Position numbers and translations under genes: made by a program
From: Tatumella ptyseos ATCC 33301
Lineage (GTDB): Bacteria > Pseudomonadota > Gammaproteobacteria > Enterobacterales > Enterobacteriaceae
Direction of reading: 5' to 3'
Assembly: GCF_000735525.1 (NCBI RefSeq)
Contig: NZ_JMPR01000028.1
Location: 1-64,000 of the forward strand
Length of the DNA: 64,000 nucleotides
In this document: positions 7,501 through 13,155 of the stretch, piece by piece
Position numbering within the stretch: the stretch's first letter is position 1
How the letters are laid out: each line of letters begins with the position of its first letter
The notes under the pieces: generated by a model
The model's input: only the letters and a program-made list of their open reading frames with translations
Databases searched by the model: none
Told to the model about the DNA's origin: nothing

Positions 7501-7746
7501 TCACACTAAAGGAATAGACCGGCCTCTGACCTTCTGACGGCCGGTGCATGTTACCCGGTCACTTTTGGTGCGGTGGCCGGCTGAATAAATTGCTACGTCT
7601 GGCATGCACTGTGATACCTGCTCCGGACGGTTACGCCAGTTCGGTGCTTTCAGTGCCCGCTCAACGCGATCGACTGGTTTAAGCTGCATTGCTTCGGCTG
7701 CCTTGCGGGCATTGAACTCTGCCATGCGGCGTCTGTTTCTGTTCAT
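7501..7746 (-). CDS. N: Antitermination protein N
   Basis: The 81-aa product ends VTCTGRQKVRGRSIPLV, matching the C-terminus of lambda N (ITCSGRQKIKGKSIPLI), and starts with an arginine-rich motif (MNRNRRRMAEFNARKAAEA) of the kind that binds boxB RNA. The ATG at 7746 has GAGGATATCCC upstream. N binds nut RNA and, with NusA and other host factors, turns polymerase from pL and pR into a terminator-resistant form. It is the first clear gene after pL. Confidence 0.92.
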   Translation of the reverse strand: MNRNRRRMAEFNARKAAEAMQLKPVDRVERALKAPNWRNRPEQVSQCMPDVAIYSAGHRTKSDRVTCTGRQKVRGRSIPLV

Positions 7747-8303: not shown

Positions 8304-8333
8304 ACAAAAAAAACCGGCGCGGTGGCCGGGGTT
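8304..8333 (-). terminator. Terminator 1 downstream of the NYN gene
   Basis: On the minus strand a GC-rich hairpin (CCGGC-CACCGC-GCCGG with flanking pairs) is followed by eight T. It begins six bases after the NYN stop codon. Confidence 0.78.
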
Positions 8334-8338
8334 AGCAG

Positions 8339-9157
8339 TTAATTTTGCTTTTTATGTCGACCAGAAGCCTGTCGGCTCCGCTGGCTTTTAGCTTTCTTTC
8401 TATCCTCCCACCAATCTGGTGCTGGGTTCGGTTCTGCATGCAATGCATCCGCAAGCCCAGTAATGAGGCTAAATGATTGAACCCCATCTATGTGTTCGGA
8501 TAGTGAAGGGCTGACGTTTTGTCTGAGGGGATCAAGAATGAAATCAATGCCTTTTATGCGGGCGTGCTTTGCTGCCGGAACAAAGTCTGAGTCCCCAGCA
8601 ACCAATACAATAACATCTACGAGTTTTTCATAAGTAAGGGTTGTAATATCTACCCCTAACTTTATATCAACCTGTTTTTGCTTGATGTCATAATAAAAAT
8701 CATCGTTAGTTAATTCGCTCCACTGCTTATGCCCCTTCATCAGGGCATCAAGAGAAAAGCTGGTTAGTTGCCAACGCTTATTGTCAACTAGGTGACCGAG
8801 CCGCAGAGCTGTCTTTCTTGTCTTTCTTAGCTCTTCGTGAAGCTCAGTTCTTAACTGATAGGACTTATCTAGCTTGAAGTTTTTACGCCCAGGGGTTTTA
8901 TTTCCTGGCTCAGGGAGTGGGTATCTTGTTTGTATATCTAAAGGAGGGCAGTCATAAAAATAGATACGGTAGAGTTCGAGTGGATCTCTTCTCTCCTGAG
9001 ATTGCTTTCTGTCCTTGAGGTGTGAAATTACCATCGACCATATCACTTTCATGATACAAGGTGCCGTTAATTCCTCAGACGAGAAGTGCTTTCTATGTGT
9101 TGCATTTAGACGCTGCATAAAAAATCCGGCGTCTATCAGTATTGCTGCTTTTTTCAT
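8339..9157 (-). CDS. NYN-domain (PIN-like, LabA-type) putative nuclease in the rexAB position
   Basis: The 272-aa protein has the NYN/LabA fold signatures: an N-terminal AAILIDAGFFMQRL strand with the first Asp, a central DIKLGVDITTL with further Asp, and VIVLVAGDSDFVPAAKHA with the terminal acidic pair. Family members are metal-dependent RNases of the PIN superfamily. After residue 245 there is a basic Ser/Arg/Lys-rich tail. It lies between cI and pL on the cI strand, exactly where lambda has rexAB, so lysogenic expression and a superinfection-blocking role are plausible but inferred. It has its own promoter and a terminator hairpin in the leader. Confidence 0.85.
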   Translation of the reverse strand: MKKAAILIDAGFFMQRLNATHRKHFSSEELTAPCIMKVIWSMVISHLKDRKQSQERRDPLELYRIYFYDCPPLDIQTRYPLPEPGNKTPGRKNFKLDKSYQLRTELHEELRKTRKTALRLGHLVDNKRWQLTSFSLDALMKGHKQWSELTNDDFYYDIKQKQVDIKLGVDITTLTYEKLVDVIVLVAGDSDFVPAAKHARIKGIDFILDPLRQNVSPSLSEHIDGVQSFSLITGLADALHAEPNPAPDWWEDRKKAKSQRSRQASGRHKKQN

Positions 9158-9165
9158 AAAAAATC

Positions 9166-9226
9166 CAAAAAAAAGCCCGGAGCCGTTATGCAGATATTAA
9201 CAATTGTCTGCGAACGGGGCCGGGCT
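9166..9226 (-). terminator. Terminator-type hairpin between the promoter and start of the NYN gene
   Basis: On the minus strand AGCCCGG (9226-9220) pairs with CCGGGCT (9180-9174), with inner complementary segments CCGTT/AACGG and GCAGA/TCTGC, followed by TTTTTTTT. The U-tract ends nine bases before the ATG at 9157. It would stop cI transcripts, and also transcripts from the promoter at 9236-9264, unless overridden. Confidence 0.8.
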
Positions 9227-9235
9227 GGTGAGTAA

Positions 9236-9264
9236 AATCTACTTAAACTTGACCCGTGAGTCAA
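9236..9264 (-). promoter_or_regulatory. Candidate promoter of the NYN gene with a palindrome at the -35
   Basis: Minus strand: TTGACT (9264-9259), 17-base spacer, TAGATT (9241-9236). The -35 is part of the inverted repeat TTGACTCACGGGTCAA, a possible regulator site. The transcript would start at about 9229, so nearly the whole 5' leader is the terminator hairpin. Confidence 0.6.
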
Positions 9265-9337
9265 ACAAAAAAACCAGAAGAATTAAAAAAAACAGAAAAG
9301 CAAAAAAAACAAAAACGTAAAAAACGGAAAAAACAAT

Positions 9338-10048
9338 TCACTTAAACCGCATCTTGGCCTCAACGGCTACGCCAATGATTTTGCAGTTCCCGTTGATCGG
9401 AACCATCGGCCAGGCCGGGTTAAGGCCTTTCAGGTACTTCTGGCCGCCATCGATAATCAGCTTCTTGAACGTTGCTTCGTTGGAATCGACCAGCTTTGCG
9501 ATCACCAGGCTTCCATTAACCGGATCTTTGCCAGTATCGAACAGGACATACATACCCTCAGGAACACTCATGCCGGTCGGCGCAGTCATTGAGTCACCCT
9601 CAACCTTCAGCCAGAACGCTTCACCCTGGATATGCGCGTCAGACTCAAGCCACTCACTTATCTCGCTTAAGGTGTAGGCTTCGATAGCTTCGGCCCAGCA
9701 ACCCGCCTGAACGGAGCTGAGGACGGGGTATCGCTTCCCGGGATGGTAAGGCTGGGGATTGCTCACATTATTTTCAAAAGCTGCAGCATACTTGCCAACT
9801 TCTTTAGCCAGCTTCGGGCTAATGTCAGACACCTGAACCTGCAATATCCTTGCGAAATCAGTCACTACAGGGACATTTAATGCGATTCTTCCATTAATGT
9901 AATGGCCGACAGCTCCCTGAGATATACCCATATCATCAGCGATTGTGTATTGAGTAACCTTTAATTGCTTCTTTTTTGACTCATACAAGGCCTTTAGACG
10001 CGCGGCATCTTCAAGCTGTTCTGTCGTCAGGGTCTTTTTAATTTCCAT
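9338..10048 (-). CDS. cI: CI repressor (S24 autocleaving)
   Basis: The 236-aa protein aligns with lambda CI throughout. It has an N-terminal helix-turn-helix (QYTIADDMGISQGAVGHYIN), the Ala-Gly cleavage site in SSVQAGCW, the catalytic Ser in VEGDSMTAPTG and the Lys in EATFKKL. RecA filaments after DNA damage stimulate cleavage, causing induction. It is transcribed leftward from OR. It ends in an A-rich spacer before the NYN gene. Confidence 0.95.
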   Translation of the reverse strand: MEIKKTLTTEQLEDAARLKALYESKKKQLKVTQYTIADDMGISQGAVGHYINGRIALNVPVVTDFARILQVQVSDISPKLAKEVGKYAAAFENNVSNPQPYHPGKRYPVLSSVQAGCWAEAIEAYTLSEISEWLESDAHIQGEAFWLKVEGDSMTAPTGMSVPEGMYVLFDTGKDPVNGSLVIAKLVDSNEATFKKLIIDGGQKYLKGLNPAWPMVPINGNCKIIGVAVEAKMRFK

Positions 10049-12507: not shown

Positions 12508-13155
12508 TTATTTATCTGATTTTTCTCGTTTTACTCTAACCATTTCAGGGAGTGTGAATGAATAAATCAGGAATACTTCGGTGAAGCCAATCATCTCTTC
12601 AGCTTCCTGCTGAGTGAATTCTTCATCTGAATGAACTGCTCCATTGGCATCAAATCTGACGATGTGGGCCCATTCCCTCATTTGTTCAGTTATTTTCCCT
12701 TGAGCATGGAGCATGGAAATTCGTTTTGAAAGCTGCTCTTTGCCGGAGTCATCCCCTAGAATGACTTTTGTTGATATATCTACCACTTTCCGACATAGCA
12801 TTACGGACGTTTCGTAATTCCCACGCTTCAGGTTGTCTTTTGCTTCGACAAAGAATTTTGCGGCTCTTTCTGGAGAGCTCTCTGGGGCAGAGCTAATTTC
12901 TGGCTTAGGGAAATAATCAAGAAGAGGAAATTGTGGGCTATCAGGAATCGAGGTGTCACCATAATGTTCGGCAAATCCCATGGGGTTAAAACCACCAGGA
13001 GATAAAACATTAGCTGATGTTGGATTACCGCAGCTACGGCAAAAAAAACTGACGGAGTGCTCGCTATTTTTCTTTTCAATCTGACCAAACGCCACAAGCA
13101 CAGCCTTCTCCCGAAGGCAATGAGGGCAGGTTATATCTAATGTGAGGATACCCAT
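12508..13155 (-). CDS. DUF4145-domain protein with zinc ribbon, opposite strand
   Basis: The 215-aa product has an N-terminal zinc-ribbon pattern (CPHC...CRSCG) and a C-terminal DUF4145-like helical domain (YETSVMLCRKVVDISTKVIL, ISMLHAQGKITEQM, AHIVRFDANGAVHSDEEFT). DUF4145 domains recur in restriction and other defence loci, but no activity is established. It runs against the pR operon between P and nin, so it is cargo probably expressed in the lysogen. Its ATG overlaps head to head the start of the gene at 13154. Confidence 0.8.
   Translation of the reverse strand: MGILTLDITCPHCLREKAVLVAFGQIEKKNSEHSVSFFCRSCGNPTSANVLSPGGFNPMGFAEHYGDTSIPDSPQFPLLDYFPKPEISSAPESSPERAAKFFVEAKDNLKRGNYETSVMLCRKVVDISTKVILGDDSGKEQLSKRISMLHAQGKITEQMREWAHIVRFDANGAVHSDEEFTQQEAEEMIGFTEVFLIYSFTLPEMVRVKREKSDK

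What the first reader, a model, noticed from the sequence alone, without database searches (positions are those of the whole stretch)
9157..9337. NYN-domain gene with a terminator placed between its promoter and start codon
The promoter at 9236-9264 would start RNA near 9229. The leader is almost entirely a nested hairpin (9226-9174) with an eight-U tract that ends nine bases before the ATG. The promoter -35 lies in the palindrome TTGACTCACGGGTCAA. A putative nuclease gene in the rexAB position would thus be expressed only when termination is overridden or the hairpin is disrupted. This may be an infection-triggered exclusion system: superinfecting phage N or another antiterminator, or a change in RNA folding, could switch it on.
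Basis: partly seen in the sequence, partly recalled or inferred. Interest (0 to 1): 0.8.

Follow-up and report, generated by a model that had tools for sequence, protein, structure and literature searches.

The report
Structured RNA guarding a phage nuclease
In a prophage, a gene for a probable RNA-cutting enzyme sits right behind a tiny, strongly conserved RNA that ends transcription before the gene, and the same RNA-plus-enzyme pair recurs in phages and plasmids of very different bacteria, which suggests an undescribed system in which a small RNA holds a toxic nuclease in check.

Summary
In detail: promoter 9264-9236 (-), hairpin 9226-9174, eight-U tract ending nine bases before the ATG of a NYN-domain gene (8339-9157, -). 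The proposed reading, an attenuator overridden by phage N, is not supported: RNA should begin at the hairpin, leaving no room for a nut site or antiterminator. Instead the hairpin is itself a conserved small RNA. Against E. coli-type phages the RNA is 96% identical, third codon positions about 40%, upstream DNA under 50%. Such RNAs precede NYN genes in phages, plasmids and genomes (two phyla by model score, four by layout) with strong covariation. A search blind to NYN found 12 strong copies; 9 lie directly before NYN. RNA subtype I matches one protein clade (100/100). Damaged NYN genes keep the RNA. Rfam has no such family; nine paper searches listed no description. Best reading: a type III-like toxin-antitoxin module in which a single-unit RNA, abundant because of its terminator, neutralises an NYN ribonuclease made only by read-through. 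It lacks two features of type III (repeats, ToxN fold), so it is a new variant. Toxicity, binding and phage defence are untested. Some NYN clades lack the RNA and some RNAs lack NYN. The -35 palindrome TTGAC-N6-GTCAA is also conserved.

The parts
9338..10048 (-). cI-like LexA/S24 repressor gene, upstream neighbour
   Evidence: HTH_3 and Peptidase_S24
9236..9264 (-). sigma-70-type promoter, TTGACT-17-TAGATT
   Evidence: 49 of 71 distinct relatives score at least 9 of 12 in the 70 nt before the hairpin, against 12.9% of shuffles
9249..9264 (.). palindrome TTGAC-N6-GTCAA over the -35, candidate operator
   Evidence: exact at 8 of 48 TTGAC sites in 97 distinct promoters of relatives (Tatumella's own included), 0.035 expected; only copy in the window
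9174..9226 (-). conserved structured small RNA (subtype I), which is also the terminator hairpin
   Evidence: covariation; conservation; R2, 83.5 bits for 9167-9226; the window is one of R2's own seed sequences
9167..9174 (-). eight-U tract of the intrinsic terminator
9158..9166 (-). nine-base gap GGATTTTTT with a weak Shine-Dalgarno (GGA), before the ATG
   Evidence: the Shine-Dalgarno reading is by eye
8339..9157 (-). NYN-domain protein, 272 aa, predicted ribonuclease (putative toxin)
   Evidence: PF01936; phrog_5783 E 1.2e-113; model pLDDT 91.9, best solved match MARF1 NYN; D9, D164, D170, D189, D191 invariant in the 28 sequences
8314..8329 (-). intrinsic terminator after the NYN gene
7501..7746 (-). 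N antitermination protein gene; fixes the rexAB-like position
   Evidence: PF25694

Best explanation
The locus is a two-part module: a promoter drives a 55-60-nt structured RNA whose own outer stem and U tract form an intrinsic terminator, and the NYN ribonuclease gene behind it is transcribed by read-through. Most likely the abundant small RNA binds and neutralises the rare NYN ribonuclease, as in type III toxin-antitoxin systems and AbiF. When RNA synthesis stops or the RNA is lost (phage shut-off, loss of the element), the stable nuclease is freed and cuts cellular or phage RNA. Shown here by computation: the anatomy, the conservation and covariation of the RNA, its tight association with NYN genes, the match of RNA subtype I to one protein clade, and an intact-looking NYN fold. 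Inferred: that the RNA accumulates, binds the protein and inhibits it, that the protein is toxic, and that phage infection is the trigger.
For: Leaders of 112 distinct NYN relatives: 84 with long hairpin plus T tract, controls 28 of 432 and 20 of 336. Covariation: subtype I (15 sequences) 12 of 17 pairs changed on both sides, score 0.486 against 0.240 in shuffles, 0 of 500, slid structures at most 0.129; subtype II (25 sequences) 12 of 14 pairs, 0.475 against 0.185, 0 of 500, slid at most 0.276. RNA 96% identical where codon position 3 is 38-42% (the 5 E. coli-type ones of 15 relatives; 57-96% over all 15). NYN-blind DNA pattern in 2.9 million viral contigs: 62 matches, 12 strong by model R1 at E<1e-6; 9 of these 12 have NYN 17-44 nt downstream on the same strand, and none of the other 50 pattern loci (nor the one) has NYN (one of the 9, L240, is the contig of a seed sequence). 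Subtype I pattern: 33 of 33 directly before NYN, all on contigs already fetched, so what it adds is that no copy away from NYN was found. 369 genomes: 10 R1 hits at E<1e-4, 8 before NYN (6 of them seeds), 1 before a NYN C-terminal remnant, 1 alone. Subtype I is one protein clade, support 100/100; all RNA labels need 4 changes against 20 in shuffles. E. coli: RNA at 95% identity or more in 274 of 5426 genomes, RNA plus gene at least 80% covered in 73. Same layout as the shown AbiF/RCd22 system (passages of PMC12373285).
Against: No expression, binding or toxicity data. [quoted passage not shown] Of the 17 of 369 genomes with NYN at E<=1e-20, only 8 have an R1 hit at E<1e-4; the 9 others include the window's own (subtype I), two with a hairpin that R1 scores weakly (L081, L083) and fragments or genes without a recognisable RNA. 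The Rhodanobacteraceae-like NYN clade (L006, L007, L010, L018, L172) and Campylobacter pTet copies (L074, L075) have no recognisable RNA, so NYN can persist without it. Some RNA copies have no NYN (L204, L218, L237, L266). Model support outside Pseudomonadota, Bacillota phages and viral contigs is weak (L011 E 0.006, L072 0.02, L019 0.21). A conserved RNA could equally activate or guide the nuclease. In E. coli 25 of the 44 damaged rows listed are labelled O157, so few independent events.
Confidence: 0.6

Rival explanations
1. RNA-guided or RNA-activated nuclease: the small RNA is a required cofactor (scaffold, guide or sensor) of the NYN enzyme, not an inhibitor.
For: Single-unit RNA with conserved loop residues, RNA subtype I matched to one protein clade, one strong RNA match per locus.
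Against: No variable stretch that could serve as a guide was seen by eye; parts of the apical loop are conserved. Damaged NYN genes keep the RNA, which fits an antitoxin better; NYN clades without RNA exist.
Confidence: 0.2
2. Cis-acting attenuator or riboregulator: the hairpin only controls NYN expression, perhaps by autogenous binding or cleavage by the NYN protein.
For: Terminator shortly before the start codon (median 23 nt over all extracted hairpins, range 9-66); one structure for terminator and RNA.
Against: In most members no upstream sequence for an alternative fold (43 of 52); conserved internal-loop and apical-loop sequence; orphan copies without an NYN gene behind them.
Confidence: 0.15
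3. One reading: an exclusion gene switched on when a superinfecting phage's N or other antiterminator overrides the terminator.
For: Position between cI and pL/N, also in E. coli prophages and phage ev099 (in one search a DUF3024 gene lies between cI and NYN) and after cI in a Proteus phage.
Against: No space for a nut site between promoter and hairpin; the arrangement is the same on Gram-positive phages and on plasmids.
Confidence: 0.03
4. Plain terminator of cI that happens to sit before NYN.
For: It would also stop read-through from cI; no other hairpin is seen by eye between cI and NYN.
Against: Conserved far beyond a terminator's needs, present where cI is not the neighbour, and with its own promoter in most members.
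Confidence: 0.02

Closest known systems
AbiF / RCd22 RNA antitoxin module of Clostridioides difficile phage phi027 (PMC12373285, passages read)
   Same: Prophage-borne; one promoter, a small RNA ending in an intrinsic terminator, no promoter between terminator and gene, gene read by read-through; RNA neutralises the protein in trans (that part shown only for AbiF).
   Different: AbiF is an Abi_2 family protein with links to Cas13, not NYN; its RNA has two motifs and a separate terminator hairpin; here one hairpin serves as both.
Type III toxin-antitoxin systems ToxIN, CptIN, TenpIN, AbiQ
   Same: RNA gene, intrinsic terminator, ribonuclease gene in that order.
   Different: Toxin fold (ToxN) differs from NYN; antitoxin RNA is a tandem array there, a single unit here.
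NYN (PIN-like) ribonucleases, e.g. MARF1, LabA/DUF88
   Same: PF01936 domain and fold.
   Different: Family-specific conserved stretches (YRIxFYDC, RLG); paired with a conserved RNA.
VapC-type PIN toxins (recalled)
   Same: PIN-like ribonuclease on mobile elements; one, VapC20, cuts the 23S sarcin-ricin loop (recalled, no call).
   Different: VapB antitoxins are proteins (recalled); in the window no small protein gene lies between cI and NYN.
Lambda rexAB (recalled)
   Same: Position between cI and the left operator, likely expressed in the lysogen.
   Different: Unrelated protein; own promoter and RNA here.

Membership tests
Type III toxin-antitoxin | RNA gene, intrinsic terminator, toxin gene, one promoter | tested here: met
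   (sequence only)
Type III toxin-antitoxin | antitoxin RNA made of tandem repeats | tested here: not met
   one strong model match in each leader
Type III toxin-antitoxin | ToxN/AbiQ-fold toxin | tested here: not met
   Pfam gives NYN only; no ToxN-named chain among the 50 listed fold matches
Type III toxin-antitoxin | protein toxic, RNA neutralises it by binding | not testable with these tools
   needs bench work
AbiF | Abi_2 domain protein | tested here: not met
NYN ribonuclease | NYN domain above the curated cut-off | tested here: met
   37.6 bits, cut-off 24.2
NYN ribonuclease | conserved acidic residues and NYN fold | tested here: met
   D9, D164, D170, D189, D191 invariant in 28 sequences; in the wider set of 27 D164 and D191 are only nearly so, since L022 has lost them; MARF1 NYN is the best solved match, E 7e-4, TM by target 0.67-0.69, by query 0.39-0.41
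NYN ribonuclease | cuts RNA | not testable with these tools
   no assay
Any Rfam family | match at gathering score | tested here: not met
   window, 18 relatives, window 9100-9340 at E up to 5: no family fits the RNA
Transcription attenuator (N/nut or alternative fold) | nut site or antiterminator sequence between promoter and terminator | tested here: not met
   9 nt between -10 and first paired base in Tatumella, 8-16 nt in 43 of 52 relatives
Lambda RexAB | homology to RexA or RexB | tested here: not met
   Pfam and PHROGs searches of the protein, give only NYN and an unnamed family

The most novel reading that the evidence does not exclude
An RNA-neutralised NYN nuclease family in which the RNA is a decoy of the nuclease's target. 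In most subtype II members the internal loop reads (A/U)GUA on one strand and NGA on the other, the signature (recalled) of the loop E or bulged-G motif, and AGUACG also stands in the 23S sarcin-ricin loop, which the PIN toxin VapC20 cuts (recalled). The nuclease would then cut that ribosomal loop when freed, and solitary copies of the RNA on phages (L218, L237, L266) would be counter-toxin decoys. The window's own subtype I RNA lacks this motif, so there the decoy would have to differ.
Probability: 0.12. Interest if true: 0.92.

Novelty: new variant of a known kind. Interest (0 to 1): 0.77.

Why it matters
It would add a widespread RNA family, with no match in Rfam, and an unrelated nuclease fold to the few RNA-protein toxin-antitoxin modules, on mobile elements of two bacterial phyla by model score and four by layout. 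AbiF-like modules are linked to the origin of Cas13, so a second, independent RNA-plus-nuclease pair makes the question of how RNA-controlled nucleases arise testable. It also gives a function to test for a gene family now annotated only as 'NYN domain-containing protein', PIN or hypothetical, whole or broken in 274 of 5426 complete E. coli genomes.

Tried and rejected
Rejected: N-controlled attenuator, plain cI terminator, leader-peptide attenuation (no room), Rex homology, antisense (type I) pairing (the RNA lies on the same strand as the gene). PADLOC gave only weak matches (NYN E 2.9e-4, HEC-09 E 5.6e-4), no system. PDB sequence search found nothing useful. Rfam at E up to 5 gave two chance-level hits. 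R1 does not find the window's RNA (weak hits elsewhere only) and R2 gives L013 only 27 bits, so common descent of the two RNA subtypes is inferred from position and protein homology. The palindrome occurs four times in the whole genome, about what chance gives by my own estimate, so no regulator could be named; it was seen by eye before it was tested, and over all 16 gaps tried there are 12 exact matches against 0.8 expected. One search repeated with other rows. The degenerate pattern was expected to give about 66 chance matches (my own estimate, not the tool's); 50 of 62 were not strong by R1. In E. coli the annotation splits the NYN gene of L062 and L316, yet the frame of L062 is open over 285 codons. 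Ten hairpins judged not of the family (L008, L018, L074, L086, L088, L089, L154, L183, L185, L187) were dropped for the promoter and palindrome tests; they stay in the 112. Some of the 112 'leaders' are mis-starts of gene fragments (for example L087, L184, L186-L190) and were kept, which lowers the fraction. Many of the 195 loci are the same contig fetched twice, hence the collapse to 112. The tree used 59 chosen proteins, and its RNA labels were given by me. R1 hits between 1e-3 and 1e-2 (6 places) and three weak R2 genomes were not followed.

Full report
What is there. On the minus strand, in order: cI-like repressor (9338-10048), a T-rich spacer, promoter TTGACT-17-TAGATT (9264-9236), a 53-nt hairpin (9226-9174), eight U (9174-9167), nine bases, and the ATG of a 272-aa NYN-domain protein (8339-9157), followed by a terminator (8329-8314), a pL-like promoter site and N (7501-7746). 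The leader folds at -26.1 kcal/mol, z -4.37. The genome is Tatumella-like: the NYN of Tatumella sp. JGM118 is identical and a genome of the same genus carries the same pair.

The hairpin is a conserved RNA. Megablast against 5426 E. coli genomes gives matches in 274; in the 20 records listed the alignment runs from window base 9229, the predicted start of transcription, into the gene, and nothing upstream of it aligns. Between the window and the five E. coli-type relatives (L025, L027, L032, L036, L039; the leader of L032 is that of the E. coli loci L062 and L063) the 53-nt RNA is 96% identical, codon position 3 is 38-42% identical and the 160 nt upstream 16-47% (15 relatives examined, RNA identity 57-96%). 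The two differences are a G-C to A-U exchange in the outer stem.

Reach. Of 195 loci read, many fetched twice, 112 leaders are distinct; 84 of 112 have a long hairpin directly followed by a T tract, against 28 of 432 leaders of other ORFs in the same loci and 20 of 336 shuffled leaders. Hosts with this layout include Pseudomonadota, Actinomycetota (L011, L012, L014, L019), Bacillota (phages L066-L068) and Thermus (L072). By model R1 the match is good in Pseudomonadota, in Bacillota phages (L066 3e-5, L067 1e-5, L068 0.002) and in a human-gut phage (L069 1e-13), but weak in L011 (0.006), L072 (0.02) and L019 (0.21), so the two last phyla rest on layout. The hairpin ends a median 23 nt before the start codon.

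Structure. Subtype I (window, other enterobacteria, Pseudomonas and others; 15 sequences) has an outer stem, a middle stem, an inner stem and a 12-nt loop with conserved AU and UUA: 96.1% of cells paired, 12 of 17 pairs with changes on both sides, covariation 0.486 against 0.240 in shuffles (0 of 500) and at most 0.129 when slid; but further pair types were not above shuffles (15 against 18.8). Subtype II (25 sequences) gives 84.1% of cells paired, 12 of 14 pairs, 0.475 against 0.185, 0 of 500, at most 0.276 when slid. Related sequences inflate such shuffles, and the structures were drawn on these sequences; the slid controls fall well short. In 45 of 56 distinct R1-scored subtype II copies the internal loop reads (A/U)GUA opposite NGA; 11 of the 56 were selected for that motif, so the fair figure is 34 of 45, and among copies neither seed nor pattern-selected 12 of 20.

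Association with NYN. A DNA pattern that knows nothing of NYN gave 62 matches in viral contigs. Model R1 scored 12 of them at E<1e-6. Nine of the 12 have NYN 17-44 nt downstream on the same strand; none of the other 50 has NYN. One of the nine (L240) is the contig of a seed sequence. A second pattern gave one locus, L274, negative in both. The subtype I pattern gave 33 of 33 before NYN, all on contigs already fetched. In 369 genomes R1 gave 10 hits at E<1e-4: eight before NYN genes (six are seeds), one before the C-terminal remnant of a NYN gene (L200, read by eye from the DNA) and one alone (L204); six hits between 1e-3 and 1e-2 were not followed. Conversely, 17 of the 369 have NYN at E<=1e-20 and 9 of these 17 have no such R1 hit: the window's own (subtype I), L081 and L083 (hairpin present, scored weakly) and six others, among them fragments and genes without a recognisable RNA. 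In 119 genomes of the family, R2 hit strongly in two, both before NYN; a third genome has a partial NYN with an in-frame stop and no R2 hit, and three more have weak R2 hits that were not followed.

Co-inheritance and decay. In a 59-protein tree RNA subtype I is one clade (100/100); all labels need 4 changes against 20 in shuffles. A Rhodanobacteraceae-like clade, Campylobacter pTet (L075) and L088 lack the RNA. In E. coli the RNA is present in 274 of 5426 genomes, at 99% or more in 269 of 275 records, while RNA plus gene is at least 80% covered in 73 genomes. In the other genomes the gene is truncated or interrupted by this measure; 25 of the 44 such rows listed are labelled O157, so this is few events, but the gene is damaged while the RNA stays, as expected for an antitoxin.

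Promoter. 49 of 71 distinct relatives score at least 9 of 12 for a sigma-70 promoter (12.9% of shuffles); of the 52 with 8 or more, the -10 ends 8-16 nt before the first paired base in 43 and 22-41 nt before it in 9. In most members the transcript is therefore little more than the hairpin, which leaves no room for a nut site or an alternative fold. The -35 palindrome TTGAC-N6-GTCAA is exact at 8 of 48 TTGAC sites in 97 promoters (14 with at most one mismatch; four have N9, three of them from one lineage), expected 0.035. Some DNA-binding regulator probably acts here; I cannot name it.

Protein. PF01936, phrog_5783 without a function. AlphaFold2 model pLDDT 91.9, pTM 0.86. Best solved match: MARF1 NYN, E 7e-4, one of two targets (both chains of 5yaa) under 0.001. 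D9, D164, D170, D189 and D191 are invariant in 28 sequences; L022 has lost two of them.

Mechanism. The layout is that of type III modules and of AbiF/RCd22, where most transcripts stop at a terminator before the gene, the RNA accumulates, and it neutralises the protein in trans (passages of PMC12373285). I commit to an RNA-neutralised NYN ribonuclease at 0.6. A cofactor or guide RNA (0.2) and a cis regulator (0.15) remain. By the repeat and fold criteria it is not a member of type III as defined so far.

Literature. Nine searches of open-access full text listed no NYN-RNA module; four of them listed only the 20 best of 59 to 1,186 papers. Seen were search listings with the start of abstracts, and passages of PMC12373285, PMC5571608 (one E. 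coli NYN in a table) and PMC3710099 (a citation of the NYN paper). Subscription journals and supplements were not searched, so a description elsewhere is possible.

Noticed in passing
L218 9219-9276; L237 9256-9308; L266 7786-7841 (-); L204: Strong copies of the RNA without an NYN gene behind them, in phage contigs and one genome. Possibly remnants, or decoys against NYN modules.
   Followed up: partly
L237 9252-9569 (-): A ToxN-like (type III toxin) reading frame, PF13958 E 1.3e-18, runs antisense into the orphan RNA, as if two RNA-toxin modules had met at a junction.
   Followed up: partly
L218 9531-10181: A RelA/SpoT-domain gene lies about 254 nt downstream of the orphan RNA; upstream are two repressor-like genes (one HTH_3 by Pfam, one by eye).
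   Followed up: partly
window 9249-9264: TTGAC-N6-GTCAA palindrome over the -35, conserved in distant NYN modules; a N9 form in L119, L127, L128, L177.
   Followed up: partly
window 12508-13155 (-): DUF4145 gene with a HEPN match just below that family's cut-off, on the strand opposite to the neighbouring early genes (neighbours judged by eye).
   Followed up: no
window 9268-9337: Seven runs of T, 4 to 8 long, between the cI stop and the promoter, starts mostly 6-10 nt apart, possibly bent DNA.
   Followed up: no
L006, L007, L010, L018, L172: Rhodanobacteraceae-like NYN clade without a recognisable RNA.
   Followed up: no
L004 2557-2642 (-); L020 4457-4541 (+): C4 antisense RNA near a Pseudomonas NYN locus and sRNA-Xcc1 near a Gallibacterium one.
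   Followed up: no
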